Position numbers and translations under genes: made by a program. This document shows positions 13,691-62,051 of a stretch of 64,000 nucleotides of DNA, one piece after another. The notes under the pieces were generated by a model. That model was given only the letters and a program-made list of their open reading frames with translations, ran no database searches and was not told the DNA's origin. The stretch is from assembly GCF_040958095.1 (NCBI RefSeq), contig NC_091151.1:7198509-7262508 (forward strand). The letters are read 5' to 3'. Each line of letters starts with the position of its first letter. The stretch's first letter is position 1. Origin of the DNA: Procambarus clarkii (Eukaryota > Arthropoda > Malacostraca > Decapoda > Cambaridae).

Positions 13691-14362
13691 TTAACATTTA
13701 AATTTATCCAATAAGAAGGTTAATTTGTTTTTTAAAGTTTCCTGGCCTATTAGCATAATATTTTCAGGCTTTAATGCACCTGAACTTTCAATATTGAAAT
13801 AAAATTGTTTTCGTTTATTACAATCTTCCAGAAAATAAGAAGAAGTGTTGTTACAGCAATCAAAATCTATATTAATTGTCGGATTCCATTTGGCGTGGTT
13901 TTTGCCAATCCCCTTGATAGCATATGCTTTTAAGCATAATTTTTGTCCATTATTAAGTTTAACCAAAGGAATTGGGATTTCTTTGTGAAAAGATGGTATT
14001 ATATCAGATGTTGTTATGAGGTATTGTTTGTCTTCACGACATTTAACATCCAAAATAAATTCTACTGCACATTTCGTACAAAAGATAATACATTGACATT
14101 TCCATGGAATTTTTAATTTATTAATGAATTCATCTGAAGGTATTGGGATTAGACCTAGACGATGAATAATGAACTCATCACTTAATATAGTTGTATTTTT
14201 TTTAATTTGAACCCAATCAATGGCTATAGTAGGAGTCTCAGCTATAAAAATCCGCCGCAATCCATTTACTAGAGCTAAATTTATATTTTCTATTTTAAAT
14301 TGTATCATGTCAGGTGATAAATCTAAAATTTTAATTGTTATCTGATCTGTATTGATAGCCAT
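13691..14362 (-). CDS. RPB3-like RNA polymerase subunit, divergent, probably viral
   Basis: An intact 223-aa ORF with an ATG start. It shows the assembly-domain hallmarks of the RPB3/AC40/alpha family: ALVNGLRRIFIAETPTIAID (residues 30-49) followed by LSDEFIIHRLGLIPIP (60-75). It also has the RPB3 zinc-site pattern CxCxxxCxxC at residues 89-98. The C-terminal half has the second dimerisation segment (LKPENIMLIG). It is shorter than cellular RPB3 (usually about 270 aa or more) and very divergent, AT-rich and intronless. In the family this subunit nucleates polymerase assembly with an RPB11-like partner and binds RPB2, and a decayed RPB2 lies at 48-50.5 kb. A host origin is unlikely given divergence, compactness and neighbours. 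Confidence 0.85.
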   Translation of the reverse strand: MAINTDQITIKILDLSPDMIQFKIENINLALVNGLRRIFIAETPTIAIDWVQIKKNTTILSDEFIIHRLGLIPIPSDEFINKLKIPWKCQCIIFCTKCAVEFILDVKCREDKQYLITTSDIIPSFHKEIPIPLVKLNNGQKLCLKAYAIKGIGKNHAKWNPTINIDFDCCNNTSSYFLEDCNKRKQFYFNIESSGALKPENIMLIGQETLKNKLTFLLDKFKC

Positions 14363-14630
14363 GTCTTGAAATAATATTGTTTTGAATAAACCGTTTACTT
14401 AATATATAGTATGTAAGGTTACAATATATATTCATTTTAGGAATAAAAAAAAAACTTAAATTATCATGGAATACCGGAAAACCATACCCAGGTCATACAT
14501 ACAATTATCACTCTTTACCCATCATCAGTCATCCATCCCTCACCCATCTGCCCCTGGCACTGGCACTGGTACTGGTTCAAGAGCAAGGGTCACTAATTCT
14601 CTTCAACTTTGAGGAAATAATAAGTAAAGT

Positions 14631-14807
14631 TTATTTATCTTTCCTTCTAATTTTTCGACATTTTAAAATTACTAAAGGACCTTGGGTATCCCCACTACCA
14701 TCAACATCAACATTATTATCAGAATCTTCATCATCATCATCACCCATATTTCTATGGATATCAGTGTCATTAATTTCACAAGTCTCTCTATTGATCTGAA
14801 ATTTCAT
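14631..14807 (-). CDS. Small acidic ORF (58 aa), overlapping upstream gene
   Basis: ATG at 14,807 lies inside the last codons of the 388-aa gene, a 20-nt overlap in another frame. The product has an acidic run (GDDDDEDSDNN, about residues 22-32) and a basic end (CRKIRRKDK). The same strand and the overlapping start suit compact viral gene packing. Function is unknown. The low-complexity centre means it could be chance. Confidence 0.4.
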   Translation of the reverse strand: MKFQINRETCEINDTDIHRNMGDDDDEDSDNNVDVDGSGDTQGPLVILKCRKIRRKDK

Positions 14808-15954
14808 ATCTGAAATTATACTTAATATTATTAGTATTCATTTTTTGGGAAGATGCATTATCATAGTCTAATGCACTGTACAAAATATATTTCTGTAAAC
14901 CTACTACTGCCTGTTGATGTGTAGCAGCAGTTAGTGAATCAAACACAGTAAGTAATTTGAAGTGTAATTTAGTGGCATCTCTAGAATTGATCTCTTTGAT
15001 ATCATGATCACAAATTACAGTGTCCGTCAATTTTCTAACAAATTTGTAAAATAATTCACTACTATACATGTTTGCTTTTTCAATAAAATTTACCATGTAT
15101 AAGCTATTATTATCTATATACTTTTTATTGTTAAATTGAATATGTTTTCTTAACTTACCAATTTCATTAATAAGATATTTATAAATTAACTTCTGATCCT
15201 TCCGGTCTTGTTTTACCATTAAAAATGTCCATAAATTTGTTAACATTCTAATATATAATATTATGTATTTATATTCTAACGAAAAACCTTCATTTTTAGG
15301 TATTTGTTCAATGTATTTAGACAAATATTGTTTTAAAGTTTTCATGTCAAAGAAACGAGTATTAAATTTCAGTTTGAATCCTGAAAAGCCCAATCCAGCG
15401 ATTTGATATATTTTTCTAACTATAAAGTTATTTTTATTGGATTCCGATTGAGGGAAAATATAAGTACCATTGTTTTGAATACCCCTTGGACGAGAAGAAG
15501 AATTGAGATTTCTATGAGAGGGGGCATTTATTCCATACTTCTGGAGTAGACCATAAGAAGATTTATTTCCATTAGTTGGACCAGGATCACTGATCTCGTC
15601 TACTTCATCTTCAATATTATCTTGTATGACATTTCTATGAATTTCATCATCTTCTGTTGGATTGTTTCTATCTTCTCTTACTTTGGCTCTTTCGAATCTC
15701 CTAATTAATCCATAATTCATTCCCCCTTTTTTTACTGATCCTAATCCCTCTCCTGTAAATATATTAAGTGAAATATAGTAATGAATTAACAATCTTAGTG
15801 GTATTTCTTGTTTTACTGTTAACAGTGGGAAAAACTTTTTATTAAAATTACCAGTTGAATATGTTTTTGAAATTCTTATTTGGAAATATTTTTCTTTTCC
15901 ATTACGATTTTGGAAATTAAAAACAATTAATTGACTCCTAGTTGAACTGGACAT
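14788..15954 (-). CDS. Unknown 388-aa protein of the viral block
   Basis: An intact ATG-started ORF. The N-terminal ~75 residues look globular (YFQIRISKTY, LRLLIHYYISLNIF), followed by an acidic and Asn/Ser-rich linker (about 90-170) and a mainly helical C-terminal half. There is no membrane segment, no signal peptide and no motif I recognise. It lies between the RPB3-like gene and a 72-aa ORF, all on the minus strand with short AT-rich gaps, so it is probably part of the same viral gene array. Confidence 0.7.
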   Translation of the reverse strand: MSSSTRSQLIVFNFQNRNGKEKYFQIRISKTYSTGNFNKKFFPLLTVKQEIPLRLLIHYYISLNIFTGEGLGSVKKGGMNYGLIRRFERAKVREDRNNPTEDDEIHRNVIQDNIEDEVDEISDPGPTNGNKSSYGLLQKYGINAPSHRNLNSSSRPRGIQNNGTYIFPQSESNKNNFIVRKIYQIAGLGFSGFKLKFNTRFFDMKTLKQYLSKYIEQIPKNEGFSLEYKYIILYIRMLTNLWTFLMVKQDRKDQKLIYKYLINEIGKLRKHIQFNNKKYIDNNSLYMVNFIEKANMYSSELFYKFVRKLTDTVICDHDIKEINSRDATKLHFKLLTVFDSLTAATHQQAVVGLQKYILYSALDYDNASSQKMNTNNIKYNFRYEISDQ

Positions 15955-15996
15955 TTATTTTATACTATTTATTTTTATATATTTTATAAAAAAAAA

Positions 15997-16215
15997 TTAT
16001 TTTTTAATAATTTTACATACACTTTCTAAATTTAATAAAGTCGAATCATCCAAATTAAAAAAAATTAAATCTTCTGTTTTTATTTGTTTTTTAATATCAT
16101 TGAAAAGGTTTTCTAATTTGTTATGTTTGTTATTATTGTTTTCTCCATTTTTTGGAGATTCTGTTTCAATTTGTTGTTTAGGGGACGATTTATTATTTCC
16201 AGGTGAAGAAAACAT
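15997..16215 (-). CDS. Small hypothetical protein (72 aa)
   Basis: ATG-started ORF. The N-terminal half is polar (Asn/Ser/Lys/Gln-rich), and the C-terminal half is predicted helical (LENLFNDIKKQIKTED...). It lies 42 bp upstream of the 388-aa gene on the same strand. No recognisable domain. Confidence 0.45.
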   Translation of the reverse strand: MFSSPGNNKSSPKQQIETESPKNGENNNNKHNKLENLFNDIKKQIKTEDLIFFNLDDSTLLNLESVCKIIKK

Positions 16216-16442
16216 TATATGTTTTTCAGTATATTTTCATTTCACACACACATATAAATATAGAGTATATATACTTTTTTTTTTAATACCTGTTTAATTT
16301 AATTTTGAGTTAATCTGGCAAGATTTCTATCATTTATTTCACAATTTTGTTCACAAATTCCCTCTATGATACTAATAGTTGGTTCATTAATTGGTAAATG
16401 GGATTGTGGAATATTTGCAAAACGATTGCTGTTTATTGGTAG

Positions 16443-18069
16443 CTATGATACCTGGTATACGTTTTCAAAAAAAAGATGAGCATCTGCCAATGAAATATTT
16501 TTAAGGGCCTTGGGGAAACTACGCAAAAGAACTGATAGACGATGTAGGGTAATAAACCCACTATATGGTTTCTCTACCGAATGGCACTCTTCCATTATTT
16601 GGGCTACAATTCCACGTTCTGGTGAATATAACTCAGTTGCCTCCATAATGTTAATTGGGAGTGTGAGAAAGTTAACAGTCTGGTTCATTGATACAAACCA
16701 GGGCGAATTGAGTTTATCATGACAGTTAGCATGAATAAAGAGTGCCATCATTCCTTCAGTCAGACGCTTTTTCTTTCGATCATCAGTCATGAGATGAAAT
16801 TGGGGAAAAATTGAATATTGAAATGACGTAGGCACTTCAGAATCAAACCGCGCACGGAATGAAATGAAACGAAGTCGTTGCATCAAGGCTGAGTCATATT
16901 CGCTGAAAGTTGGGCAATTGTTGCCAAACAAAAAAATAGGTGTTGCTAAATCATATGTATCCCCATCCATATAGTTTTGACGAATCCACATTGGGGCATG
17001 ACCGCTCAATTGCTTTAAAAACAGAGAATTAAGGGTTTTAGTCGTACTCAGTTCATCCATGTACCACATTCTAACCATTTTTCCACCTCTTCCTAAATCA
17101 TGGGTCCGTTCTTGGAGACCCTTATGAGCTGTATGTACTGAGAGAATACCTGTTAAATCACCAAGAGTTAGAGTAAGAGTATTTAATAAAGCAGTTTTTC
17201 CTGAATTTGAATCTCCAATACCCAAAGTCATCTTCTTGTCATTTTGTCGATGGCATGCTTTTAATATTAGTGAAAAAAAATAAATCATAGTAGTTGAATC
17301 ATAGCAAAAGATCTGTGCTAGTGTTAACAAAATATCAACTAATTGACAATTACAATTAGGTTTCACTGGTTCACCAACATCATCTTTTCGTATAAACCGT
17401 CCATTTACCTTTAGATTTTCTTTTAAAATAGCATCTAGATGGTAAATACTTTCTTTGATTGGAATTTTACGATTTTTTATCCCATGACGGCATTCTTCAA
17501 TGAGTCTATTAAGAAGATCTTGATATTTATTTTCTATATTAATATTTTCTGAAACTCGGTTTAGTGATTCTAAAGAAGTAACCATATGTTTTAGCACATA
17601 ATATTTGACAAGTTGAGCTAATCTATTCATACCATCATTCCAAAATCGATCTATAAAGTTTATATGATATTGTTCACGACTAAGTAAGAGAATTTTATGT
17701 TTCTCTTCAACTGTCAACTTCTTATAATATTTCTTTTTTTCGCTTTCGTAATGTAGAATATCTTTTAATATTGGATTACATTGCTGCATAAAAAAGGTAC
17801 ATTTTGGTATGTGATCTAATAGTTTCAATACTTCACTCCAATCATAAATAGTTGGTCTTGTATCAGAATTTGTATTATTTGATGATTTGTACAGGGGAAG
17901 TGGTAGGATATAAAAAATTTGGTTCATCTCACTACTGCTACTGCCGCTGATGATATAACATTGAGAAGAAGCAATAAAATATCGAGGTATATCCAAGATT
18001 TTCATGTTTGCCATAAAAACTCTTTATAGAATTTAGAAGACTATTCTGAATAAGACTTCGTTTCTTGTA

Positions 18070-18105
<36 letters not shown>

Positions 18106-20485
18106 TGTAGAATCAGTAGTTTTTTTTTTTACTCTACCTTTGGCTGAAGGAGAAGGAAGGTTTGAGTTTGAATTCGATGAAGAAATTGATGAGGTTATTG
18201 ATGGAGAAGGTGACAACGGAGGAGGTGGTAATAAGTTGCTGTTGGATTGTAGCGGTGTTGGTGGTAAGGTAAGTGAAAGAAACATTTCATTTTCCAGTAA
18301 TTGTGGTTGTTGTTGTTGTTGTAGTATGCTATCAATTAAAATAATTTGACGTGCAATGTAAGCTAGGTCTGGTGCTAGTAAAGAAAAATTTATGTGATTA
18401 TTAGCTACGGACCACTTCTTAGTAGTATTATCCCAAACATTAATCTGGCGCGAATTCTTATCACATATAATAGGTTTATATATAGCTAAAAAATTGTTAT
18501 ATTCCGTTATATCAAAATTCTGTAGGAAAGAAAAAGCTATTATAATCCGAGGAATTTTAGTAGGACGTGAATTACTATTAGCTGATGGTACTACCCGATA
18601 AGTGTCACTGTCAAACTCTTCCTACATTTATATTCATGACAAAATCCAATCTTTGAGAATCAATTTTTTCTACTAGATCAAAAGCTTCTTTCATTGATAC
18701 CACATCACTAACAATTAGAAGATTTAGAAGACACAAAATTATCCAATCTTCTAATTCTTCTTTTACTTGCTGGTGTTCCTGATATCGGTTAAGAAGATAG
18801 ATGATTTCATAAAGTGGTCCAGTATCTAAGTGATTAAAATTTAAATCTCTAATTATTTGGGCTATAAAATAATTGTAGTCAGGAAATGTCATTCCCAGGG
18901 ACTTTTGACGGATCTTTTTAACATATAACAATGCTAAAAGATACAAGACAGTGTGAAGATGTTGTTTACTCTGCAAACATAAACGGGTTATATGTTCAAT
19001 GGTAAATGGCTGAATTCGTTTCAAGAAAGAATTGGTATCTCGACTGATATTGCTACTGGCAACTGTTCCGCGAATAGATGTTTGCCTTAAAGGTTGAACT
19101 GTAAACACTTTTTCAATACGATTTGCTGTCATTTGTATTTTATCGTAGTCAAAGTTTGCCTCAGCGTCATTGTCATTTGTATGAAGAATCAGGTAATGCG
19201 GAATTTCGTTAATATGTATAAAACTATTTGGATATTTTTCAAGTATAATTAAGAGTTGGTTATTCTCTTCGTGTTGTTCCTCTTGAAAATGAAGAGATTT
19301 ATATATAGAAAGTTTATATTCCTTACTAAGTGTAACAAAAAATAAACCCACTATAATTTTATTGATAATATTGTTAACATTGGAAAACATGAAAAAATCT
19401 TCTTCTGTTATATCTGGTATTTTTTCTTCATCTCTCTCCCTAGAATTATCATAATTTTCATATATAGTAAAATAATTTTCGGCGTCATCAATATTTTCTT
19501 TGTTTTGCATAAATGTTTGAACATTTTTCTGAAAAACATCCAGAGCATATGTATCATCATCCAATCCGATAATAGTTGGGAATCCTCTAATGGATGAAGG
19601 TTCATGATATTTACAGATATTAAATAAGTCAAAAACTTCACCCATACTTGATAAAATATATGAGGGTGGTGAGTTTGACATATCGTAAATATTATTTTTG
19701 TGGAAAACCGCATATGGTAAATAAGTGCAGTCCATTTCGTTTAAAGGTGTTTGCAGTTGAATTTTTTGAGAGCCAAAAATACTATAATTGGTAGTAATAT
19801 CTACGAGGGTAGGTAAGAGTTCTTTACATGAATTGGACATTAGGGCAAAATCATAATAGGAAAGAGTTAGGTGGGGTATTTCAAGATGAAATCCTTGAGT
19901 AAACGTTTGTGATTTACCTAAAATATAAATTGGTAGCCAGTCTAGACCTAAATAATAAACAATATGAGAAAGAAGTTCATATATGACATAATTTGTATTA
20001 TAATAGATCTGTCCATTAACAATGGATGTTGTTAATTGTAAGGATGACCCTGATTGTTTAAGTGTTAGATATTCTAGGTACTCAGCTGTCGATAAACGAA
20101 ATGATTCAAGAGTACACATTTTTTTTAAATCAACATCCAAGATAAAATGTATATAATCTAAACTAGGTAGACGTATGACATGGGAACCACTTATAGTGTT
20201 TGTCTCCCAAAATCTACGATATAAATGATGAACTGTTCCATTTGTTAATAAAATAAAATCAATTTCTCTTTTCCCACACATATCTGTTAGTGATCCAAAA
20301 CCATATAAACTCGTCTTATTTTTTCTTGATGAAGTACAACTTATAGTTTGAAGATCACGAGTTATTTTATTAAAAGTCCCAGTATTGGGATTGATATGTG
20401 AGTCTTGATAAGTTCGTTTTAACGGATCATAATTTTGAATAAGTGGATAAGTATAATATCGATCATTCATTTTAAAGAGCAACAT
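16443..20485 (-). pseudogene. D5-type primase-helicase (AEP + SF3), split by two frameshifts
   Basis: Three consecutive minus-strand frames make up one protein. Frame 1 (20,485-18,611, 624 aa, ATG) carries archaeo-eukaryotic primase motifs: FILDVDLK at residues 114-121 (catalytic Asp pair), GFHLEIP at 198-204 (SxH-like His) and an Asp in NEMDCTYLPY near 252. Frame 2 (about 18,620-18,000) continues with a D5-like linker (INVWDNTTKKW), then Pro/Ser-rich and Asn-repeat sequence. Frame 3 (18,014-16,443) is the superfamily 3 helicase: Walker A GIGDSNSGKT (residues 265-274), Walker B MWYMDE (316-321), motif C FLFGNNCPTF (361-370) and Arg-finger region ALMQRLRF (376-383). After TAG 16,443 the frame stays open for 48 more codons to 16,299, so that TAG may also be a mutation. 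In large DNA viruses this protein primes and unwinds DNA at the fork. The breaks lie near A/T homopolymers and an ATT repeat, so sequencing error is possible for either. Confidence 0.85.
18065..18130. repeat. (ATT)n microsatellite and T-run inside the primase-helicase linker
   Basis: TTA/ATT triplets at about 18,068-18,103 code for poly-Asn on the minus strand. An 11-12 T run follows at about 18,119-18,130. Either could cause the frame change between the linker and the helicase. Confidence 0.85.
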
Positions 20486-20561: not shown

Positions 20562-20984
20562 TTAGCTAATAGGGAAGCTTTTGTGAGACGTTGGTCGAAA
20601 GGAATTTTGGTATTGACATTGCTCACCGATATAGTGTCCATTATCCATACAAGCACATATGGTGGTTATTAAATTAGTTTCCCCAACATAATTAATAGGA
20701 AATCCTCCATTTAAACATTTATGATCAGTGTCATAATTACAAACACTATTAATGCAAGTAACTCCTAAAGAAGAAGAGCAAAATGTTTGACAGTCTTCAT
20801 TTTTCTGGCATGCTATATTGTTAATAGTACAATCCATCTTTCTTGTAATCTTTTCATATGGAGGGTGTGACATTAATATTAAATTAGAGTCTATATTTGG
20901 ATTATTACTCATATTTTTCTTATAAATGTAATTTAATATTATTGAATAAAGAATTAAACATATAAATGTAATATAAAGTTTCAT
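20562..20984 (-). CDS. Cys-rich signal-anchored protein, possible PIF-3-like
   Basis: I choose ATG 20,984, which overlaps the TAA of the Fic gene by one base, giving 140 aa. An upstream TTG start would place the Fic C-terminal region in another frame and is less likely. Residues 2-20 are hydrophobic (KLYITFICLILYSIILNYIY), a typical N-terminal anchor. The outer part has about 12 Cys in a DCT...C...DCQTFC...CINSVC...C...CAC...C pattern. An N-terminal anchor plus a small Cys-rich ectodomain resembles per os infectivity factor 3 of arthropod nuclear DNA viruses. EGF-like domains share the feature, so the assignment is tentative. Confidence 0.55.
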   Translation of the reverse strand: MKLYITFICLILYSIILNYIYKKNMSNNPNIDSNLILMSHPPYEKITRKMDCTINNIACQKNEDCQTFCSSSLGVTCINSVCNYDTDHKCLNGGFPINYVGETNLITTICACMDNGHYIGEQCQYQNSFRPTSHKSFPIS

Positions 20985-21865
20985 TATTTTTTTCTGACCA
21001 CAGATAACAGATAAAAATACATTCGCCAATTGAACAAGACACTTTCAATTACTAATTTGAGTATGTTAAGAGGTGGGCGTTGTTTTTTTGTATTTAGTTT
21101 TCGATCATGGATAATAGCCCATTCTAAATTCCCCATGATAGATGTTGGAAATGGCATTATTGTTGACAATATATAATTGACTAAAAGACGTGTCAAACGA
21201 CCATTCCCATCTGAAAAAGGATGGAGAGTAAGCATTTCTAGGATAAACCATGAAATTAATTTAAAAATCCATTCAAATTCTTCCTCTGGCCCTAAAAATG
21301 TGAATATTTTTTGGGTCAATGTAGAATTGTAATTGTCCAAAATAGCCAAAATACGATTTTCTCCATCCTGAATTGAATGGATATGTGGATATACATACAA
21401 ACCCTTGACACTTGTGTTATTACTAATCTTTGTACAGCGTATATTGGTACTTACATAACCACATTTTTCGGGTGATAACAATCCTCTCATTAATATTTTG
21501 TGTAAATTTAAAACACAAGTTTCAAGATCAATTAAACCTAATAAAGTGTACATATCCTTATCTCCTACTATCTCTTCCTTAATCTTTTTATGACCTCTAA
21601 TGAAATTTAAATATTCTATTGCTCTTAGTAAATTTCTAACCTCTCTAACTTTCCAATTAGTGATTAGAGTTTTCTTCTGGTTGTGTGGCCAAATCCCAAT
21701 ATTTTCATGTGTCATTAAATTAGTTAAAAAACCATATTCCATGGTTTTTACAACTAACCCTTGAACTTTTTTATTATTATCTAGACCTAAATATATTTGT
21801 TTAAATTTATTATTTTCAGATACTTTATTTTTTAAGTTTAGGCTTAATTCATATGAAAAAAACAT
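20984..21865 (-). CDS. Fic-domain protein (putative AMP transferase)
   Basis: An intact 293-aa ORF with an ATG start. The Fic signature HPFSDGNGRLTR is complete at residues 215-226, with catalytic His, Asp and Arg present. The preceding segment YPHIHSIQDGENR fits the flap region that positions the target, and the helical bundle around it is typical. Family members usually transfer AMP or another phosphate-containing group to Tyr/Thr/Ser of a target protein. I do not see a convincing inhibitory (S/T)xxxE(G/N) helix, so it may be constitutively active. No signal or membrane segment. The stop overlaps the start of the Cys-rich gene (TAATG), so the two may be co-transcribed. Confidence 0.9.
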   Translation of the reverse strand: MFFSYELSLNLKNKVSENNKFKQIYLGLDNNKKVQGLVVKTMEYGFLTNLMTHENIGIWPHNQKKTLITNWKVREVRNLLRAIEYLNFIRGHKKIKEEIVGDKDMYTLLGLIDLETCVLNLHKILMRGLLSPEKCGYVSTNIRCTKISNNTSVKGLYVYPHIHSIQDGENRILAILDNYNSTLTQKIFTFLGPEEEFEWIFKLISWFILEMLTLHPFSDGNGRLTRLLVNYILSTIMPFPTSIMGNLEWAIIHDRKLNTKKQRPPLNILKLVIESVLFNWRMYFYLLSVVRKK

Positions 21866-26469: not shown

Positions 26470-27669
26470 TCATATGTCTATTCTCATATAAAAATGAACA
26501 GTAGACCTAATAAAAATGGGCACACTAGATGTTTGTACATGAATGTATTTTTCATTTAAAACACTTTTAATAACCATAGGAAAGTTGGAACCAAACATTA
26601 TCACTAGTCGTCCTTTGAAATTTTTAAGTATACTAACGATAGTCATATAAAAATTCCCAATTGGTTCATTGATTATAAGTATATTGGCATTTGAATATTC
26701 TTTATTAATACAAGTTTCTTTAACTATATGCCTAATATACCCGTTTGGTAACCATTTAACTGCAGTTATATACTCTAATCTTACTGTGTTTTCTGTTGGA
26801 ATAATGCTCACACCTCGATTCAGCAAAAAACTCTCAACCCACCCACCACGAGCATAAATAGACACCACATTGTCCTTTGGGTTTATAAAACTCATTATTT
26901 CATCAAGTTCCTTCTTGGTAAGTATATGCTTTCCAAAAATAAAAATGTGCTCTTGCCAATAACAGTCGTTAGCATAATTACAAATATTTTGAAGATGTTC
27001 TAATCTTATTTTTGATGCACAATTTAAGACAGTAGATTTCGGCTGGAAATAAGCAATCTCACCTTGCCAAGATAATCGTTCATCTTCAGAAAAGAAAGAT
27101 GAACGTGGATAACCATCTATTGGTAGTTCAGGGTGGAATTGAGGTGAAAATTTATTATTTATATGATGTCCCCAGAATGGAATATGTGCAACTGAAAGAT
27201 CTTGCAACAGAATGTGATCTAAATCAACTTCAATATTTACTAACTTAGGTAGAGGGGATTTCTTTTTCTTTGGGTGTATCATTAACATTATTAAATGTAA
27301 AAATGCACCATGAAATAAATCTGTTTGGTTGCCGTCAGGAAATTCTTTGATTATTATGATATATGTACTGTAAAATAGAATAATTAAATAAAATAAAGTT
27401 AATATAACCTGATAACAGTTCATATAAAAAAAAAGGAGTAACATTAATCCCATACTTAAAACCATATAATAACCATGTACTCCATAGATTAATTTCCACA
27501 TAAAATAAGTAATCATTAAACATGCTACTAGAAATAAGACATTTGTGACATCTATAGTACATATACCAATTCCTAAGCAGAAATATATAACCATATATTG
27601 AACTTGCTTCCTGCAAACTTCTCTGTTTCTTTCACATATTAGGCAAAAAAGAAGTGCAACAAAATTCAC
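26470..27669 (-). CDS. Membrane protein with methyltransferase-like C-terminus
   Basis: The frame is open from about 27,770 without an ATG. The first in-frame codon that could start is GTG 27,669, and the first ATG lies about 26 codons further in, so the 5' end may be damaged. The N-terminal ~120 residues hold four or five hydrophobic segments (e.g. VIYFCLGIGICTIDVTNVLF, YMVLSMGLMLLLFFYMNCY). The soluble C-terminal ~260 residues include VVSIYARGGWVESFLLNRG, which resembles SAM-binding motif I, then ANILIINEPIG and FKGRLVIMFGSNF, which fit later Rossmann strands. The methyltransferase fold is inference. Substrate unknown. Confidence 0.5.
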   Translation of the reverse strand: MNFVALLFCLICERNREVCRKQVQYMVIYFCLGIGICTIDVTNVLFLVACLMITYFMWKLIYGVHGYYMVLSMGLMLLLFFYMNCYQVILTLFYLIILFYSTYIIIIKEFPDGNQTDLFHGAFLHLIMLMIHPKKKKSPLPKLVNIEVDLDHILLQDLSVAHIPFWGHHINNKFSPQFHPELPIDGYPRSSFFSEDERLSWQGEIAYFQPKSTVLNCASKIRLEHLQNICNYANDCYWQEHIFIFGKHILTKKELDEIMSFINPKDNVVSIYARGGWVESFLLNRGVSIIPTENTVRLEYITAVKWLPNGYIRHIVKETCINKEYSNANILIINEPIGNFYMTIVSILKNFKGRLVIMFGSNFPMVIKSVLNEKYIHVQTSSVPIFIRSTVHFYMRIDI

Positions 27670-48062: not shown

Positions 48063-50551
48063 CGAGTAGCTATGATTGCAATTAATCCTTTGAAAGTTAA
48101 AGCCACTGCTATTCGGTGTGGTCATATTGATGAGAGTATTACGCAAACAAAAATATTAAGCAATTCTGCAAGTATAAATACTTTAAATTAAAATAATGGT
48201 GGTAATTCATTTAACAATAGCGGGAATAATGAATGGAATAAAATTGGTCGGTTTAGTCGGAATTATTCATCTAATTCATATGCCAATATATGTCTGGTGG
48301 CATGTGGATTACAAAAATTATTGCCTAAAGATTCCAAAGCCAAAGAGCCTAAATCTATAACGGTAAGTGAGGTCGGTTTCATTGATTTACTCAATACACC
48401 TGATACTCCTCAACGATGTGGTATCATATTAGAAATGATACCTGATGTGATAATCGCCTCTACCAGCATGTGTAATTCACAACCTGATAAATTCTTATTT
48501 ACATATCTCCCTCAACTAAGACAAGTGGGAAATCCTTCACAACTTGATCAGTTAGAATCTAAATATGTCTATATAATTATTCATAATAAACTGTTTAATT
48601 TCCCATTAGATTCGATCAAGAATGGTTCTGCAGCTCAACATTTTTTTCCTCATTTGCCTCTAGTTCAATGGGAATATGTTTGTTTATTTGGAGTAGACAA
48701 TTTATACCGATTTGTTCAATATATTTTGAAATTAAATATCGCCTGTATAGAATTATTAGAATACAAAAAAATCAACTGTGGATATGCACCAGTCTGCCAC
48801 GTATGTCTTATAAAATTTTACCCAATGGCCAACTCTATACGTCTAAGGAAATAGACACTTTTCAAATGGAGGCTAATCCAGTTTTTTATTTACCACCTCA
48901 AATGCAACCTCAGATTTTTCTCAGAAAAGAAAATAGTGATCTCAAAGAGGATTTTGAATTACTCTATATTGGTTATGACCGGGAAAAAATACCTAATATT
49001 ATGGGGCCAAATGCTTGAGCGATTAGCCGTCCTAATGCTGCCCATCCCCCTCGAATTAGTAACAGTCTGCAATCGTATCGTCATTATGCTGGTATTTCTG
49101 TCAATACTCATTCTGTAGGTGAAATTCATGAAAAGACAGTTATTCATACATTATACACAACATCTCGAATGAGTAAACTTTTACCCATTCCTTGTCAAAA
49201 TCCTATGGTGGCAGTAGTAAACTGGCACAATCCCGAAGACAGTATTACAGTAAAACAAGATAGTATAGACCGTGGGTTATTTTCAGGTGTTTCTTATGAA
49301 ACATCAATTGTTCGATATAATTATGGATCAGGACAGAATGCACTACCAACTTTTTGTCAGACCTATTTTGATCAGCATACCCCACTTCAACATGGTGTTC
49401 AGTTGGGAATTTTAAAAGGGGTTAATCCCAAGTGTCAAGAAGATAATAGTTTGCTTAATTTTACAAATGGAGAAATATAATTCGTTCACATAGATGCCAA
49501 TACTCTTGCTCTTATTTGGAATGGTAAAATTGGGGATTTAAAAGAGCCTATATATGACGATTCTGTTCCAGTATCCACAGGGACGAAGAATGGAAAAGGG
49601 AGTCGAAATGACTACCGAGTTACAGTAAATGATCCACACCACCCTTCCCTTGAACGGCAACAACGGTTGAAGAAATCTCAATATTCTTTAGCTTTTAAAG
49701 AACATCATCCTAATTACATTACATTTAGGTACTTTAAAATAGATAGTGTAGATTTACCAGTACTACAAAGTTGGCGTTTTTCTCTGATAACAGTGTCAAT
49801 ATATATACCATCTTTAGGTGATAAGTTACAAACACCCACTTCACAAAAAGGTGTAATTGGGCGATTAGTTAGTGAACAGGATATGCCTTACATTAAATTA
49901 ATGAGTCAGGGTGATATGTTTTCATCAAATGTACCCATTGATGTTTTAGTTAAACCTCATTCACTTAAAAGACAAGCTCCAGATTTATATTGCAATACCT
50001 TTGATAATTTGAATTACATGGATGCAGCTTTTACTCTCACTTTTGAAAATGTTATTGAACATCTACAGTGGGGTCGAAAAACTTGTACTGGAATCCTTAT
50101 GAATCCCTATACGGGTGAACCATATTTAAATAGAGATAATGAGCCAGTTTTAGCTAGTTTATATGAAGGTTCTTATATGTGTGTTACCAATCATCGCGCA
50201 AATGCTACGATGCACACTTCACGAGCAGATGAAGTTGTATTTTCTGAACTGACCGGAGCACCAGTTCGAGGACGACGTGGTGGTCTTTCCACAGGACCCA
50301 TGGAACTTGTATCATTCCGTAGTATAGGAGCTGCTCGAATTCATACAGAATTGACTCAAATACGCTCAGACATGAAACACATTGAATTGGAAACTATTCA
50401 AAATAATGAAACAGAAACAGAAAAAAATGAAAATGAAAGTGGAGTTATCTGTGGATCAAAATACCTTCAACGTTATCATGACGATTTAATGTTAACAAAT
50501 ATTAACTTAGCATACAAATGTACATCCATGGTAAATATTGAAGAAATTTAA
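48063..50551 (+). pseudogene. RPB2-like RNA polymerase second-largest subunit, decayed
   Basis: Reads through with breaks: TAA 48,189, a frameshift between about 48,700 and 48,850, TGA 49,016 and TAA 49,478. Segments match RPB2 in order: GFIDLLNTPDTPQRCGII (fork region, ~48,375), PIPCQNPMVAVVNWHNPEDS with QDSIDRGLF (~49,190-49,285; hybrid-binding signature), QKGVIGRLVSEQDMPYI (~49,840), DVLVKPHSLK (~49,950) and GAPVRGRRGGLSTGPMELVS (~50,250, near the family's C-terminal GGLRFGEME-like region). After this a cellular RPB2 has a zinc-binding clamp. Here the C-terminal ~75 residues lack the CxxC pairs. Highly divergent and intronless, so probably viral and paired with the RPB3-like gene. The 5' part lies in the N gap. 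Confidence 0.8.
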
Positions 50552-52598: not shown

Positions 52599-53141
52599 AT
52601 GGTATCATCCAAAAAAAAACAACAACAAAAAATTGTCAAGAAAAAATGTATCCATAATGAGAAATTCTTCAGAGAAATAATTACAGACAAAGTGAAGAAA
52701 ATAGTGGACATGCTTATTAATGTCCATGGTAAAGGAGATAAAATGATTTATAACCTCTTCAATTTAGATAGGTATTGGGAAAAAGTATCCACGGTTCCTT
52801 TAACCAAAAATACTTATGTAAACGCCTGTTTGTCTTACTTGAGAGATCCAGTGCACACATATGACGCTCTCATCAGAATGAATGTTTTATCTCATAATGA
52901 AAAAGGTGATTACATGTTTGGTCATCCAGTAATATTACATGATAATCATCTTGCTGGACGACAGCTTCTAATTAAACGTTCTCATGTGGATGTGATTATT
53001 GGGACTGTGACAACTGAACAAGGATTGCTAAATGGTATCTATAATACTGGTCCGATTACTTGCCAATCAGTCACATGTAGCTTCCGTGAATATCTGATAG
53101 CTAAAAAATTTTATAATAAATTTGTACAAAATTGTATTTAA
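52599..53141 (+). CDS. Unknown 180-aa protein
   Basis: An intact ATG-started ORF. The basic N-terminus (SSKKKQQQKIVKKK) is followed by a globular domain with helices and a C-terminal part rich in beta-type residues (HVDVIIGTVTTEQGLLNG). No signal or membrane segment. AT-rich and intronless like the viral ORFs. I do not recognise it. Confidence 0.55.
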   Translation: MVSSKKKQQQKIVKKKCIHNEKFFREIITDKVKKIVDMLINVHGKGDKMIYNLFNLDRYWEKVSTVPLTKNTYVNACLSYLRDPVHTYDALIRMNVLSHNEKGDYMFGHPVILHDNHLAGRQLLIKRSHVDVIIGTVTTEQGLLNGIYNTGPITCQSVTCSFREYLIAKKFYNKFVQNCI

Positions 53142-54635: not shown

Positions 54636-55964
54636 TTAAGAAAAATATACTTTACTTACGTGACTAATTAAATTGCGACATATTGGACAGTTACTAAGTT
54701 GTAAAAGACACAATTCACAGACACAAAAATGTTGACAGGGTAAAATGAGAACACAACGTTCTTTATCTTGGCAGATATTACAGCGTGTATTCATTAAATT
54801 CTTATCATGTTGACAATCGGATGAAACTGTGAGTTGTTGACGTCCTAAATTCTTTATAGTAAAGCTCAATATCTGATCACATTTGGGATCAGATATACAA
54901 TAAGTAGTTGTATTAGGCTCATTATAAGTCCTGGTTAATGTTACTGTGTCATTATTCATTGAGGTTAAACATATATTTCCAACTTCATCTTTTTCGTTTT
55001 GATTATTTTCTTCTATGATTTTAACCCTTTTAAATTTTCTTTGGTTAAAATATAAATATCTTGTTATAATAGCTATAGCTTGATCATATGATTTAAATGA
55101 TCGTCCATAGAGTATTACTACATCTTTAAGTACTCTTTTAACAATATCGCGTTTGTAACTTTTAGATAAAGTTACTAAAATATCTAATTTGTTCATCATT
55201 TGCATAATTATATCATTAGAAAATATTTTGGGGGGATATTTAGTGATTGTAGATGAACGTATATTTTTAATAAAATCAGGCCCTTTCATGATCAATATAT
55301 AATAACATTGTGTTGACCAACGCCCATGTTCTATCCATGGATCATGACCTTCTTTCCAATTTCGAAAATGCATATTGCAATAGAAACAGATTACTTCATC
55401 TACACGAGGTGGTTTTTTATAAAAAAAAAACCCAGCTTGGGTGAACTCTTTTGGGCTGGGATGTTTTATTGAAAGTGGCCACGAGTCTTTGAAACTAGAC
55501 AAGCGAACTCTAACCTCACTATATTTTTCATGATGTGGAGTTTTATGCGAGAGTATCCCCTTGGGTAATTAGTTTTTTTGATCTAATTCAAATTCCAAAT
55601 CTTTATTATAATTAATATACTTGGGTTCTATGAGATAAGATGAAAATTCAATAGGAATATTACCTACTGGTTCGCCCTTCAAAAATGGACATTTAGGGCT
55701 TATTCTCCTATGAAATTCAATAAGTTTAATAGTGTTGTTATTTAAAATGAGTATTATATCTTCATTGAAATAATCGTCATCATTTAAAATATCATCCCAA
55801 GAATTTACATAGACATAACAAAATGCACAAGCGCATTCTATTCCTTTTTTCAGATAGAAGAAGCCATTAGTTACCAACTCTTTGGGCTTTGGGTTTACAG
55901 GCCAATTAATAAATGTTTCTAATCGCTCTTGCTCGTATTTTAAATCATTGTCTATACACAGCAT
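54636..55964 (-). pseudogene. Inhibitor of apoptosis (BIR-BIR-RING) with one nonsense codon
   Basis: One frame of 443 codons from ATG 55,964, interrupted by TAA 55,569. BIR1: RLETFINWP, then GFFYLKK, CAFC and HRRISPKC, with an insertion between the last Cys pair and the His. BIR2: WPLS...GFFFYKK, CFYC, DPWIEH and an H-x6-C ending, complete zinc ligands. The C-terminus is a C3HC4 RING (CNICQDKERCVLILPC, HFCVCELC, CPICR). Two BIRs and a RING is the layout of baculovirus-type and insect IAPs, which block caspases and act as ubiquitin ligases. The intronless AT-rich frame favours viral origin. The stop separates BIR1 from the rest. Confidence 0.88.
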
Positions 55965-56176: not shown

Positions 56177-56247
<71 letters not shown>

Positions 56248-56651: not shown

Positions 56652-57446
56652 TTATGCAACCTTTATTCCCATTTTCTTAATAATAGAAATTAATTTCTCC
56701 TTGTTTCTAAAGATTTCCTGATAAAGTGACACTTTATGTTTAAGAACTTTTTTTTCTTGGATCAGATTATTCATATCCAGCACAAGTTTTTCTGTGGTCA
56801 ACGTATTGGCAAGTAATTGATGAACCTGTTGGTGGGTCAAGATTAAAATACGGGACCCTTTACTTGCAAGAAGAATTTCCTTCATTGTTGTTATGGGTTG
56901 ATTTTCTTCACTTGGGTCTTGGGGACAAGGACGCTTTTGGGAAGTTGAAACAGTCTTTACTCCAATCTCGTTTCCTTGGGAAATTCTGGTACGTCCATAG
57001 GTTCTGGGTCTGGTGGGTCTGGTACTACTTCCAGCATTTTCTTGACCTATTGCTCCAGTTGAATTTACTCCAATGTCGCTTCCTTGGGAAATACTGATAG
57101 GTCCATGTGTTCTGAGTCTGGCGGGTCTTACACTTCTACTGGCATTTTCTGCACTGAGTTCATGGGAAGTTGTTGCAACAACAGTCTGACCTACTATGGA
57201 AGATGATGGAGTTGCCGCTCCAGTTGAATTTACTCCAATGTTGCTTCTTTTAGATAATTGCTGTTGTGTTCTGGGTCCTGCTAATTTCGGAGACAATGGG
57301 TCCACTCTAACTCTAGCAGCGAAAGTAGATGTTCTGCCTAAGTCTAAACAAACCGAACCATCAGTTATTCTGTTATAGCCACTGCCTCGGACACGTACTA
57401 AAGACCTTATTAGCAATTTCATGTCAAATTCATATGGTGCAACCAT
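56652..57446 (-). CDS. Unknown protein, paralogue A
   Basis: ATG 57,446 is preferred because the paralogue starts at the same point (MVAPYEFD). Ser/Thr/Pro-rich middle with three imperfect copies of a segment containing IGVNSTGA and RPxRxRTxGxxxISQG, followed by a Leu/Lys-rich coiled coil of about 70 residues. The first ~55 residues match paralogue B at 61,659-62,051. No known domain. Confidence 0.5.
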   Translation of the reverse strand: MVAPYEFDMKLLIRSLVRVRGSGYNRITDGSVCLDLGRTSTFAARVRVDPLSPKLAGPRTQQQLSKRSNIGVNSTGAATPSSSIVGQTVVATTSHELSAENASRSVRPARLRTHGPISISQGSDIGVNSTGAIGQENAGSSTRPTRPRTYGRTRISQGNEIGVKTVSTSQKRPCPQDPSEENQPITTMKEILLASKGSRILILTHQQVHQLLANTLTTEKLVLDMNNLIQEKKVLKHKVSLYQEIFRNKEKLISIIKKMGIKVA

Positions 57447-57977: not shown

Positions 57978-58361
57978 TCAATAATTAGAGAGTCGCTTAG
58001 TTGAATGCCGCCATACCATCTTCAAAACTACACTGGCTATAACTTCATTAAAGTAATCGACATATATAAGCTCACCTTTACGATGGATGTGATTGATCAG
58101 AAGCTCATGTTCATTTTCATAATAAATATATTTTTGTGATAACTGAAGAATCATCATTTTATACAATTGCCATTTTGATATAGGATATGACATAAAATAA
58201 AGCTTGAAAATATCAACAATGTTTTCGTTATTTTTGGGGAATTGCCTGCTGATCTTCCTTAGACTAGTACCACGTAAAGTCCCAGTTCTGACTAAGCACT
58301 GTGTCAGCTGAGCCATATATAAGTATTCGTGGCCGCCGGCCATCCACTGACGGCCAGTCAC
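57978..58361 (-). pseudogene. Fragment of an F-box gene paralogue
   Basis: The C-terminal ~70 residues (LLINHIHRKGELIYVDYF, SVVLKMVWRHS) parallel the F-box gene region LLINHVPSKGEITRVDYV and SIVLKIVKRHS at about 30,420-30,560. No F-box is present. A partial duplicate. Confidence 0.6.
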
Positions 58362-58823: not shown

Positions 58824-61493
58824 TTATTTATTTTCAACTATTCCTCCCCTTATAGTGTTTATATGTCTATCCTTTAGATTCTTTTTCTCTGTTAATGCCT
58901 CGACTTGTCGCCTGCCTTGAGTCTTATCTTTTGTCCTTTGTTTTGCGTCTTTTAAGTTCGTTTTATCTCTTTTTGATTTTGTTGTTTTCTCAACAGTTTC
59001 AGGCGAAGAAACTTTCTGGGAGGCGATTGCTTTTAAAATGCTGTCATCACCCAATACACTTTCGTACTTAACTTTTAGGTTTTTAAGGAACCACGATTTT
59101 TCTGCTTCCATATTAGCCTCGTGTAATAACGCAATCGATTTTAAATTCTTCTTTTCGTTATCGATAGACACTATTTGATTATTATCCTCATAGTTGCTTA
59201 TAGAATACGTACCATTTATCAGTGTTAATTTACTAATATTGTATAGAATTGGGAAAACGGGTGCTATTTCTATAGCTTCATTTATCATCGGTATGTTCAA
59301 TATTTCAGATAGCATATCTTTGTGGTTATACATTTCTCTTGAAAAATAAAGGTTTAATTGAATGGAACGCCGAAGAATATTATCGTTTATTACCGTGACA
59401 AGATTCTTATAGAACTGGGCGCAGAATATAAATTTGAAGATATGATTTGAAAGTGAAATAAATAATTGCATCATTTCAGATTTCGCCATTTCATTCTTGC
59501 AAAACATTTTTCTCATTGAGAGTTTTTCGAATGCTGATCTTAAATACTTATTGTTGCATGTCCCGGCCAAGTAAGCATCGAGCTGAGTAGTGACAGCTTG
59601 GATGATTAATGTGAATTTATTCATTTGAGTTTCTTCATATTCTATGGGGTCCACCGAAGTCTCATCATGGTTAATCATCGACAAATGCATTCTTGTCTCA
59701 CTTAATTCTGAAAGCATTTGTTTGTTGGAATCCTGGAGACTAGCATTTGTCTGTTGAATGGTCAACAGGTTAGAAGTTATTGTTTCATTTTCTTCTTGTA
59801 AGGTCTTAACATGTAAATCAATTTGTTGTTGTAAAGCCAGTATTTCATAAATATTATCAGAAGGGGACTTACGAATCACGTTCAAGATAATGTAATAAAA
59901 GCGTTGTACATTATTTGCATTCAAATCTTGCCTTATTTCCTTCTGGAATAATGTATATAGAATAGTAACGAAAGCATAAACTTTTATAACTTCCTCATTC
60001 GTTCCTTTATGATCTTTTTCCAGGTCAACAATTCGTTTGGTTATAATTTCTTTAACTAAAACTATTGATGCCACCGCGTCTATTAACAATTTAGCAACAT
60101 AATTAGGTTCGTCTAATTGACGTTTTAAATGATCATTTTCATTTACATAAGGTATTATTTGACGTTCGTGTTCATATACTGTTTCATCGATAATATTAGT
60201 TTTAAATTTGTCTAATATTTGATTAAATAAATTTCTTTCTTCCTCGTTAGTAAAAATATTAAGAATATTATTATTTTGGTGTAGATCATTATTATTAATA
60301 TAATTTAAACGGGAAATCCTATCTCTAATGTCCTTTTCACGTTCTTCGTGAATGTAGTTATCACGTTCGGTATTTAACTGATGAATGAACTTATTTATTA
60401 TTGCTTCAATTTGTGATTTTCCTGTTGCTTTCGATTCATTATCATTATTTAAAGGAAATATGCTTGAAAAACAATGAATTATATCGCTATTCGATAATGT
60501 AGGTTTTGTATAAAGTCGCTCTAATGTTTCAATATTATATTTATTTGCTTCATTTATATTCTTTACTAATGTATTATATTCGTCATACTTTATTTTTTTA
60601 GAATTTTCACAATCTAGTAGTTTTTGTTGGCATTCTTGAACATAATGGTTTTGGGATACTAATAAATTATTATATTCTTCTTTTTCTGATAGTTTATCAT
60701 CTTTGCATTTTTGTAGGGCTTGTTGGCATTCCAGAAATTGCATTTTCTGGATCCTTATATCGTTTTCACATGCAGCTAATTTTAGTTGGTATTCCTTAAG
60801 AGACATTAAATTTATATTTATTTTCATATATAATTCTTCTTGTTGTTGACGACTTATACTAGTATTATTTGAATTTATTAAATCGGTTAGTTTTTCTTTT
60901 TCATCAGCTAAGTCTTTTATTTGTTTGTCTTTGTCTTCGAAGATATGTTGAAATTGTCTGTCTTTCTCATCTAACATAAATGCATATTCTGTTTCATACT
61001 GTTTCTTTTCATCATCGTATTGGATTATAAGCTTCATTTGATTATCTTGAAGAGTTGAATTTTCCTTCTTTAAATTCTCTATTTCATTTTCTTGGTCTCC
61101 TAATTTCTTTGTAAGCTGCACAATAGTAAGTTCTAAATCTCTCACATTTGTATTTAAATCTGTTATTGTGGCATCTTGATATCCACATTTATTTTCTAAT
61201 TCACTTTTTTCATTCTCGCATTCATTACATTTTTTATTCAAATGAGCTATTGTTTGTTTTTGTTGATTCTGACTCTTAAGAGGATATGTTTCAGTTATTA
61301 ATTTAATATATCGATCAGAGATAGTAAACAAATGAAGCATTTTATTCAATAATAAAATTATTCTTTTATCATCATCATTCACAACAACAAAATTGTTAAT
61401 AAGAGTTTTTATGAATATACGTTCTCTCAAACCCGAGGAACCATTGTCTGGGAATGTTATAGTATTCAAGATTATTTTAACAATTTCACTCAT
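58824..61493 (-). CDS. Large coiled-coil protein (889 aa), intact
   Basis: An uninterrupted ATG-started ORF, the longest intact gene in the window. Residues ~1-75 are globular-helical. About 75-340 is a long coiled coil (e.g. LENKCGYQDATITDLNTNVR). A second coil lies near 560-640. The region around 650-810 is more hydrophobic and globular (SLSNHIFKFIFCAQFYKNLV). The last ~60 residues are very basic (Lys/Arg/Thr). No membrane segment or catalytic motif. A structural or scaffold role is inference. Its integrity contrasts with nearby broken genes. Confidence 0.7.
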   Translation of the reverse strand: MSEIVKIILNTITFPDNGSSGLRERIFIKTLINNFVVVNDDDKRIILLLNKMLHLFTISDRYIKLITETYPLKSQNQQKQTIAHLNKKCNECENEKSELENKCGYQDATITDLNTNVRDLELTIVQLTKKLGDQENEIENLKKENSTLQDNQMKLIIQYDDEKKQYETEYAFMLDEKDRQFQHIFEDKDKQIKDLADEKEKLTDLINSNNTSISRQQQEELYMKININLMSLKEYQLKLAACENDIRIQKMQFLECQQALQKCKDDKLSEKEEYNNLLVSQNHYVQECQQKLLDCENSKKIKYDEYNTLVKNINEANKYNIETLERLYTKPTLSNSDIIHCFSSIFPLNNDNESKATGKSQIEAIINKFIHQLNTERDNYIHEEREKDIRDRISRLNYINNNDLHQNNNILNIFTNEEERNLFNQILDKFKTNIIDETVYEHERQIIPYVNENDHLKRQLDEPNYVAKLLIDAVASIVLVKEIITKRIVDLEKDHKGTNEEVIKVYAFVTILYTLFQKEIRQDLNANNVQRFYYIILNVIRKSPSDNIYEILALQQQIDLHVKTLQEENETITSNLLTIQQTNASLQDSNKQMLSELSETRMHLSMINHDETSVDPIEYEETQMNKFTLIIQAVTTQLDAYLAGTCNNKYLRSAFEKLSMRKMFCKNEMAKSEMMQLFISLSNHIFKFIFCAQFYKNLVTVINDNILRRSIQLNLYFSREMYNHKDMLSEILNIPMINEAIEIAPVFPILYNISKLTLINGTYSISNYEDNNQIVSIDNEKKNLKSIALLHEANMEAEKSWFLKNLKVKYESVLGDDSILKAIASQKVSSPETVEKTTKSKRDKTNLKDAKQRTKDKTQGRRQVEALTEKKNLKDRHINTIRGGIVENK

Positions 61494-61658
61494 TTTTTTT
61501 AAATTATTGATTTAATATAATTCTACGATCAGGTGACAAAAATTAAGCAAGAAAAAGAAGGATGAGTGGGGCTTCATTTTCAAACAGGTAAAAGAAATTA
61601 TTTATTTATTTACCTGATTCTCATAGAAATTGTAGGGGACGATGATGGATTGAGAGAA

Positions 61659-62051
61659 TTAATTGGAGGAGGAGGAGGAGATGGTGGGTGTGTTGAGTAA
61701 GTAGGAGGAGATAGTGGTTTCGGAAAAGGAACTTTTTTGGATGCTCCATTCCCTTATACCCCTTCTCAACATAGAAATTTGTTTCTCCTGTTCTTTAAAC
61801 ATTTTATACAAAACTGACAAATTTTGTTGAATAATATGGTTTTCATGTTTCAGCTTATTAATATTCAGCAATAGTTGCTGTTGTGTTCTGGGTCCTGCTA
61901 ATTTCGGAGGCAATGGGTCCACTGGAACTGTAGCAGCGAAAGTGGATGTTCTGCTTAAGTCTAAAATGACTCCTGTGTTATAGGCACTGCCTGAGACACG
62001 TACTAAAGACCTTGACAATTGCATGTCATCAAATTCATATGGTGCAACCAT
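61659..62051 (-). CDS. Unknown protein, paralogue B
   Basis: ATG-started, 130 aa. The first ~55 residues (MVAPYEFDDMQLSRSLVRVS, VDPLPPKLAGPRTQQQ) match paralogue A at 57,446-56,652. The middle repeats of A are missing and a short coiled coil follows. The upstream DNA is also shared with A. The pair flanks the 889-aa gene and the F-box fragment. Confidence 0.5.
   Translation of the reverse strand: MVAPYEFDDMQLSRSLVRVSGSAYNTGVILDLSRTSTFAATVPVDPLPPKLAGPRTQQQLLLNINKLKHENHIIQQNLSVLYKMFKEQEKQISMLRRGIREWSIQKSSFSETTISSYLLNTPTISSSSSN

What the first reader, a model, noticed from the sequence alone, without database searches (positions are those of the whole stretch)
13691..62051. Endogenous large DNA virus with its own cellular-type RNA polymerase in a decapod-like genome
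The window holds divergent RPB3-like and RPB2-like genes, a D5 primase-helicase, an intronless IAP, a Fic gene, an F-box gene and several unknown ORFs, all AT-rich and without introns, split by host retroelements and satellites. Known crustacean endogenous viruses are mostly relatives of white spot virus, for which cellular-type RPB2 and RPB3 are not usual. The set would fit an undescribed lineage near nucleocytoplasmic large DNA viruses.
Basis: partly seen in the sequence, partly recalled or inferred. Interest (0 to 1): 0.92.

Follow-up and report, generated by a model that had tools for sequence, protein, structure and literature searches.

The report
Fossil naldavirus with stolen polymerase subunit
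This stretch of an animal genome, likely a crayfish or another decapod, holds scattered and partly broken genes of a predicted relative of baculoviruses, among them an intact gene for RPB3, a part of the cell's RNA-copying enzyme, which the virus likely took from an animal host and would have used in an RNA polymerase of its own.

Summary
RPB2 and IAP are broken, the helicase block spans three frames, and a 500-N gap (47563-48062) separates the two blocks.

An overlooked ORF beside the helicase (20562-20984) resembles PIF3, a signature of Naldaviricetes: one relative passes Pfam's cut-off (23.1 vs 22.2 bits); the window copy (19.5) and a 99% copy (20.0) do not. A crustacean nudivirus also has PIF-3 beside its helicase, and baculovirus relatives have D5-like helicases.

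RPB3 is animal-type. With three relatives it forms a clade apart from the 117 other listed homologs (SH-aLRT 100), shortened but keeping four cysteines. One relative is filed under a microsporidian sequenced from crayfish muscle.

Best reading: fragments of an endogenous naldavirus of an undescribed lineage, whose polymerase likely used a captured RPB3. Kinship of RPB2 to LEF-8 is open, and the host species is not established.

The parts
13691..14362 (-). RPB3-like gene, 223 aa, intact ORF, animal Pol II type, shortened
   Evidence: Pfam PF01193/PF01000; PDB RPB3 1.5e-59; relatives 99, 80, 62%; tree
14788..15954 (-). ORF of 388 aa, no family match
   Evidence: GC3 0.21
16443..18014 (-). D5-like (P4-family primase C-terminal) helicase ORF, 523 aa
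   Evidence: TIGR01613 6e-10, PHROG_6088 4.2e-10; no Pfam match above cut-off, no PDB match, no protein homolog in the length range searched
17938..18621 (-). ORF in another frame between the helicase ORF and the upstream ORF, low-complexity; likely middle of the same gene
   Evidence: inference from position and overlap
18611..20485 (-). ORF of 624 aa upstream of the helicase; likely N-terminal part of a primase-helicase (primase-like motifs recognised from memory only)
   Evidence: position; no reliable match in Pfam, NCBIfam, PHROGs, PDB
20562..20984 (-). PIF3-like Cys-rich protein with hydrophobic N-terminus, 140 aa
   Evidence: Pfam PF05006 19.5 bits here, 23.1 bits in relative P0122, cut-off 22.2; 10 Cys invariant in 3 of 3 rows
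20984..21865 (-). Fic-domain protein, 293 aa; its stop codon overlaps the PIF3-like start codon by one base
   Evidence: PF02661 1e-9
26470..27594 (-). ORF of 374 aa with hydrophobic N-terminus, no reliable match
27944..28606 (-). ORF of 220 aa, no match
29340..30170 (-). ORF of 276 aa, no match
30257..31285 (-). F-box protein, 342 aa; paralog of the fragment at 57978-58343
   Evidence: PF00646 3e-6; blastp 49% over 57 aa, 4e-8; DNA 71% over 201 columns
48192..50551 (+). RPB2-like gene, broken by a frame change and at least two in-frame stops; N-terminal part not seen (N gap upstream)
   Evidence: PF00562 8e-5 and 1.3e-6, PF04560 0.011; NCBIfam archaeal subunit B 5e-7; ORFs
52599..53141 (+). 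ORF of 180 aa, no reliable match
54636..55964 (-). IAP-type gene: BIR / in-frame stop / BIR + RING
   Evidence: PF00653 3e-18 and 4e-11, PF13920 4e-11
56652..57446 (-). ORF of 264 aa, paralog of 61659-62051, with a 35-bp tandem repeat upstream
   Evidence: blastp 72%, 8e-30
57978..58343 (-). fragment paralogous to the F-box protein of block 1
58824..61493 (-). ORF of 889 aa, no reliable family match
61659..62051 (-). ORF of 130 aa, paralog of 56652-57446
62889..63749 (-). RING protein with 108-bp coding repeats; viral or host not settled
   Evidence: PF13920 1e-12

Best explanation
The window holds separate, partly broken blocks of genes that likely come from an integrated large DNA virus of the class Naldaviricetes (the pif-gene viruses, baculovirus relatives), including an intact RPB3-like gene that was likely captured from an animal. 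Shown: RPB3, Fic, F-box, BIR/RING, RPB2-like and D5-like helicase sequences; a PIF3-like ORF beside the helicase; one repeat shared by both sides of block 1 and retroelement ORFs to its right. Inferred: the blocks belong to one virus lineage (shared F-box paralogs), and the repeats are host DNA. Predicted mechanism: the virus used its own multi-subunit polymerase, in which the captured RPB3 served as the assembly platform (the role of RPB3/RPB11 in cells, established knowledge) for the virus's RPB2-like catalytic subunit, while the PIF3-like protein belonged to an entry complex and the helicase to DNA replication. The copies were later broken up by stops, frame changes, repeats and satellites.
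For: PIF3: Pfam PF05006 in 3 of 3 rows (19.5, 20.0, 23.1 bits; cut-off 22.2), 10 Cys invariant; pif genes are called signature genes of Naldaviricetes (PMC10271883, passages). Neighbourhood: PIF-3 beside a 1269-aa helicase on the same strand in crustacean nudivirus PvNV (PMC12282328, passages), here beside a helicase block spanning about 1347 codons; the order along the strand is reversed. D5-like primase-helicases occur in baculovirus relatives (PMC4981718, passages). RPB3: nearest named homologs are animals and PDB gives 1.5e-59 for the best RPB3 against about 6e-34 for the yeast-type entries (organism labels recalled); window + P0001-P0003 form a clade, SH-aLRT 100, apart from 117 other rows; Cys 89/91/95/98 (zinc ligands in RPB3, recalled) invariant in 8 of 8 rows; both RPB3 domains match above cut-off. 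Lineage: RPB3 and PIF3-like relatives at matching steps, 99/80% and 99/79%, not shown to be from the same sample. Blocks linked by F-box paralogs. Repeats: 9632-10141 / 38724-39240 on both sides of block 1 (94.8%) and 36063-36168 / 62711-62819 on both sides of the gap; reverse transcriptase and RNase H ORFs at 35911-37938.
Against: The window's own PIF3 score is below Pfam's cut-off, only about 41 of 149 profile positions align, and another Cys-rich family (late nodulin) scores weakly too. The two PIF3-like relatives lack the hydrophobic N-terminus as predicted. AlphaFold of the PIF3-like protein was poor (pLDDT 47.6) and Foldseek gave 0 matches at E <= 0.001 in either library (114 and 20 at E <= 10). 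No other naldaviral core gene (PIF-0/1/2/5, DNA polymerase, LEF-4/5/9) was matched in the 30 ORFs. The RPB2 pieces matched general and archaeal RPB2 models, not Pfam's LEF-8 family. A 500-N gap separates RPB2 from RPB3, so that they come from one virus is inferred. Seven IMG/VR scans found no relative. RPB3's nearest animal group is unresolved, with sister position to malacostracans at 76.6, and the program warned of long branches and odd composition. No expression data.
Confidence: 0.6

Rival explanations
1. Endogenous nucleocytoplasmic large DNA virus, near Mininucleoviridae or Iridoviridae.
For: D5-like primase-helicase and a very divergent RPB2 fit; mininucleoviruses infect crustaceans, keep a D5-like helicase and three divergent polymerase subunits and have many low-complexity tracts (PMC6960288, passages).
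Against: PIF3-like gene; no MCP, A32 ATPase or Erv1 match in 30 ORFs; the three subunits in that paper's table are RNAPA, RNAPB and RNAP5, with RPB3 at 0 occurrences in the main text.
Confidence: 0.15
2. Same virus, other mechanism: the RPB3-like protein entered host Pol II in place of host RPB3 and redirected it to viral promoters, instead of serving a viral polymerase.
For: RPB3 is strongly animal-like and keeps its domains and four cysteines; nimavirids lack viral polymerase genes (PMC10271883, passages).
Against: An RPB2-like gene of probably the same virus argues for a viral enzyme.
Confidence: 0.25
3. The RPB3-like gene is a fast-evolving host paralog or retrocopy, next to unrelated viral fragments.
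For: Sister to the malacostracan rows in the best tree (support 76.6); the window is host DNA with retroelements.
Against: Clade of four with a long stem; three relatives with open reading frames of 219-224 aa, all shorter than the 273-275 aa of the four other rows aligned; GC3 0.21 against 0.34-0.49 in the three host-type ORFs measured; same divergence steps as the PIF3-like neighbour gene.
Confidence: 0.12
4. Mis-joined or contaminated scaffold: microsporidian or viral contigs joined to decapod DNA.
For: 500-N gap at 47563-48062; nearest named relative P0003 is filed under the microsporidian Astathelohania contejeani; near-exact duplication at offset 1600 in 5335-8875.
Against: Block 1 lies wholly left of the gap between two copies of one repeat; P0003 is nearer to the metazoan-type RPB3 entries (about 8e-58, best 2.8e-61) than to yeast-type ones (8e-38) (organism labels recalled) and groups with the window.
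Confidence: 0.08

Closest known systems
Nudiviridae of crustaceans (e.g. Penaeus vannamei nudivirus, PMC12282328)
   Same: PIF-3 gene beside a long helicase on one strand; a viral polymerase with LEF-8 (RPB2-type, recalled); IAP genes (passages).
   Different: PIF3-like protein shorter (140 vs 198 aa); gene order reversed; the PIF3 search gave only 2 unnamed hits; RPB3, Fic domain and F-box have 0 occurrences in that paper's main text.
Nimaviridae, endogenous nimaviruses of decapods (PMC10871703, PMC7016691)
   Same: Integrated in decapod genomes, pif genes, BIR/RING genes, eukaryotic-like genes (passages).
   Different: Nimavirids lack lef-4/8/9 polymerase genes (PMC10271883, passages); RNA polymerase, RPB, Fic and F-box have 0 occurrences in both main texts; three telomere-repeat patterns were not found in the window.
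Mininucleoviridae (PMC6960288)
   Same: Crustacean hosts, D5-like helicase, divergent RPB2, low-complexity tracts.
   Different: NCLDV core genes; polymerase subunits RNAPA, RNAPB, RNAP5; RPB3 and pif gene 0 occurrences in the main text.
Animal Pol II subunit RPB3
   Same: PF01193 and PF01000 domains, four cysteines, conserved core.
   Different: 37-44% identity to the 117 other listed homologs, 223 vs 273-275 aa in the rows aligned, own clade.

Membership tests
Naldaviricetes | pif gene homologs (signature) | tested here: inconclusive
   PIF3 23.1 bits in relative P0122 (passes 22.2), 19.5 in the window and 20.0 in P0121 (below); partial profile coverage.
Naldaviricetes | PIF-0, PIF-1, PIF-2, PIF-5, DNA polymerase, P33 | tested here: inconclusive
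   None matched in 30 ORFs, but only partial blocks are in the window.
Lefavirales | LEF-4, LEF-8, LEF-9 polymerase components | tested here: inconclusive
   RPB2-like pieces found, matching RPB2 models and not Pfam LEF-8; no LEF-4/LEF-9 match in 30 ORFs.
Nudiviridae | Sequence kinship of core proteins to known nudiviruses | tested here: inconclusive
   PIF3 search found only 2 unnamed close relatives; the helicase-piece search could not see proteins over about 915 aa.
Nimaviridae | Nimaviral core genes (wsv026, wsv360, wsv447, wsv514 etc.) | not tested
   Their sequences were not at hand.
Nucleocytoviricota | Major capsid protein and A32-type packaging ATPase | tested here: inconclusive
   No match in 30 ORFs; partial blocks only.
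Nucleocytoviricota | D5-like primase-helicase | tested here: met
   (TIGR01613 below its curated cut-off); shared with baculovirus relatives, so not diagnostic.
RPB3 / RNA polymerase alpha-like family | RNA_pol_L and insert domains | tested here: met
   53.6 and 52.2 bits, cut-offs 24 and 33.9; Cys 89/91/95/98 invariant in 8 of 8 rows.
Endogenous viral element | Viral genes continuous with host DNA | tested here: inconclusive

The most novel reading that the evidence does not exclude
An undescribed naldavirus lineage of crayfish and kin built its own RNA polymerase around a stolen animal Pol II subunit: a captured RPB3 became the assembly platform of a viral enzyme, supplying an alpha-type subunit that is not among the four baculovirus polymerase subunits (LEF-4, LEF-8, LEF-9, P47).
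Probability: 0.35. Interest if true: 0.82.

Novelty: new variant of a known kind. Interest (0 to 1): 0.6.

Why it matters
Baculovirus polymerase has four subunits (LEF-4, LEF-8, LEF-9, P47), and P47 is absent from filamentoviruses, hytrosaviruses and the filamentous viruses of bees and ants (PMC12548425, passages). A lineage that captured an animal RPB3 would show how such an enzyme can gain a cellular assembly subunit, and would widen the known endogenous viruses of decapods beyond Nimaviridae. The RPB3 relatives in other datasets make this testable by sequence alone.

Tried and rejected
NCLDV membership was considered and lowered after the PIF3 result. Microsporidian origin (because of the name on P0003) was rejected: metazoan-type RPB3 and grouping with the window. 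An ordinary host RPB3 copy was rejected, but sister position to malacostracans (76.6) and grouping with 17 cnidarian/sponge/placozoan-side rows (p-AU 0.616) could not be told apart; both groups were picked after seeing the tree, 8 of the 14 malacostracan rows and 8 of the 17 others by a name given, the rest by their place in the tree. AlphaFold of the helicase ORF failed (pLDDT 35.0) and of the PIF3-like protein was poor; Foldseek gave nothing significant. Protein search with the helicase ORF found none of 5854 candidates at E <= 0.01, limited to proteins of about 288-915 aa. Seven IMG/VR scans were empty. PDB searches with five other ORFs gave nothing useful. Upstream and downstream sequences of ORFs were printed but no promoter or terminator motif was tested. 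Three telomere-repeat patterns were sought and not found. The host species could not be identified.

Full report
What is there. The window (64,000 bases, 500 N at 47563-48062) has two groups of compact, mostly AT-rich open frames. Block 1 (13691-31285, the listed ORFs all on the minus strand) carries RPB3-like, a 388-aa ORF, a D5-like helicase region, a PIF3-like ORF, Fic, three ORFs without matches and an F-box gene. Block 2 (48192-63749, right of the gap) carries RPB2-like pieces and a 180-aa ORF on the plus strand and, on the minus strand, an IAP-type gene, two paralogous ORFs, an F-box-related fragment, an 889-aa ORF and a RING gene. Pfam matches passed the cut-off in 10 of 30 ORFs, three of them host-type. 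ORFs are longer than in 200 Markov shuffles of each of three segments. Third-position GC is 0.17-0.28 in 14 of 17 virus-like ORFs measured; 56652-57446, 61659-62051 and 62889-63749 have 0.29-0.41, and the three host-type ORFs 0.34-0.49.

State of the genes. RPB3-like, PIF3-like and Fic are open. RPB2-like pieces lie in two frames, with in-frame stops between abutting ORFs, after the N gap. The IAP-type gene is interrupted by one in-frame stop (55569-55964 abuts 54636-55568). The helicase region 16443-20485 is three ORFs in three frames overlapping by 11 and 86 bases; that they are one gene is inferred.

Host context. Sequence 9632-10141 recurs inverted at 38724-39240 (94.8%), on both sides of block 1, and 36063-36168 recurs at 62711-62819 (89.9%), on both sides of the gap. 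Reverse transcriptase and RNase H ORFs lie at 35911-37938 and an S-AdoMet synthetase frame (two domains matched, uninterrupted) at 34176-35087. That these repeats are host DNA is inferred. Block 1 joins them without a gap; for block 2 the evidence is the shared repeats.

RPB3. Of 199 proteins at E <= 1e-5 the best 120 were listed: P0001 99%, P0002 80%, P0003 62%, then 117 rows at 37-44%; those of the 117 that carry an organism name are animals. In PDB the best RPB3 scores 1.5e-59 and the yeast-type entries about 6e-34 (organism labels recalled). In a tree of these 120 and the window, window + P0001-P0003 form a clade (SH-aLRT 100) on a long stem. Its sister group is unresolved: malacostracans at 76.6 in the best tree, an early-animal grouping not rejected. 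The program flagged long branches and odd composition. Cys 89, 91, 95 and 98 are invariant in 8 of 8 aligned rows. The clade's proteins have 219-224 aa against 273-275 in the four other rows aligned: 20-28 against 38-39 residues in a middle loop, 9-17 against 42-51 in a stretch nearer the C-terminus, and a shorter tail. P0003 is filed under Astathelohania contejeani, whose draft genome was made from spores collected from muscle of the crayfish Austropotamobius pallipes (PMC7849709, first of two parts read); that P0003 is crayfish or virus DNA in that assembly is my inference.

PIF3-like gene. The ORF 20562-20984 has a hydrophobic N-terminus and ten invariant cysteines. Its protein search gave 2 hits among 4 candidates: P0121 99% and P0122 79%, like the RPB3 steps of 99 and 80%; whether the pairs come from the same samples is not shown. 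P0122 passes the Pfam PIF3 cut-off (23.1 vs 22.2 bits, 9e-5); P0121 (20.0) and the window (19.5) do not. Only profile positions 2-42 of 149 align. The structure model was too poor to help.

Helicase and neighbourhood. The helicase ORF matches TIGR01613 (6e-10, below that family's curated cut-off) and five PHROG primase families (4e-10 to 2e-7). A network study of dsDNA viruses states that baculoviruses and their relatives also harbour a D5-like primase-helicase (PMC4981718, passages). In PvNV PIF-3 lies beside the 1269-aa helicase on the minus strand (PMC12282328, passages). In the window the PIF3-like ORF lies 76 bases from the helicase block, on the same strand, in the opposite order.

RPB2. 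Pieces match PF00562 (8e-5, 1.3e-6), PF04560 weakly and an archaeal subunit B model (5e-7); the best PDB match is 7.9e-5, a subunit RPO2. Pfam's LEF-8 family was not matched. Whether it is a LEF-8 is open.

Links between blocks. The F-box protein has a paralogous fragment in block 2 (49% over 57 aa, 4e-8; DNA 71% over 201 columns). This supports one lineage in both blocks, not one insertion event.

Novelty. A search for RPB3 with naldaviral family names listed 40 of 72 papers, RPB3 count 0 in those 40; a search for RPB3 with large DNA virus, crustacean and related terms listed 20 of 146, RPB3 count 0 in those 20. RPB has 0 occurrences in the main texts of PMC7016691, PMC10871703, PMC12282328 and PMC12548425. 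The library is open-access only, and two papers that I tried, PMC6340018 and PMC11013392, were not held. The claim of novelty is limited to these searches.

Verdict. Best reading: fragments of an endogenous naldavirus of an undescribed lineage with a captured animal RPB3, confidence 0.6; the polymerase mechanism is predicted.

Noticed in passing
5335-8875: Near-exact duplication at an offset of 1600 bases: identity is exact for 1859 bases (5335-7193) and 99.5% over 1942 columns in BLAST: very recent duplication or assembly artefact.
   Followed up: partly
10142-13541: A 123-bp minisatellite (about 25 copies) is open in frames of both strands; the plus-strand frame reads as a threonine-rich, mucin-like repeat protein with one stop, close to RPB3.
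   Followed up: no
9632-10141 and 38724-39240: A 517-bp repeat in inverted orientation; each copy directly adjoins a tandem-repeat array (10142-13131 and from about 39240).
   Followed up: partly
34176-35087: Uninterrupted S-AdoMet synthetase frame (central and C-terminal domains) beside a retroelement, probably a retrocopy; GC 0.46.
   Followed up: no
57528-57698 and 62133-62203: 35-bp tandem repeats upstream of both copies of a paralogous ORF pair; could be a viral repeat region.
   Followed up: no
41616-45406: Very GC-rich CCGCCACC-type satellite arrays about 2 kb before the N gap.
   Followed up: no
22072-25107: Plus-strand ORFs with long acidic and trinucleotide repeats in the middle of block 1; two of them were scanned without a reliable family match.
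   Followed up: no
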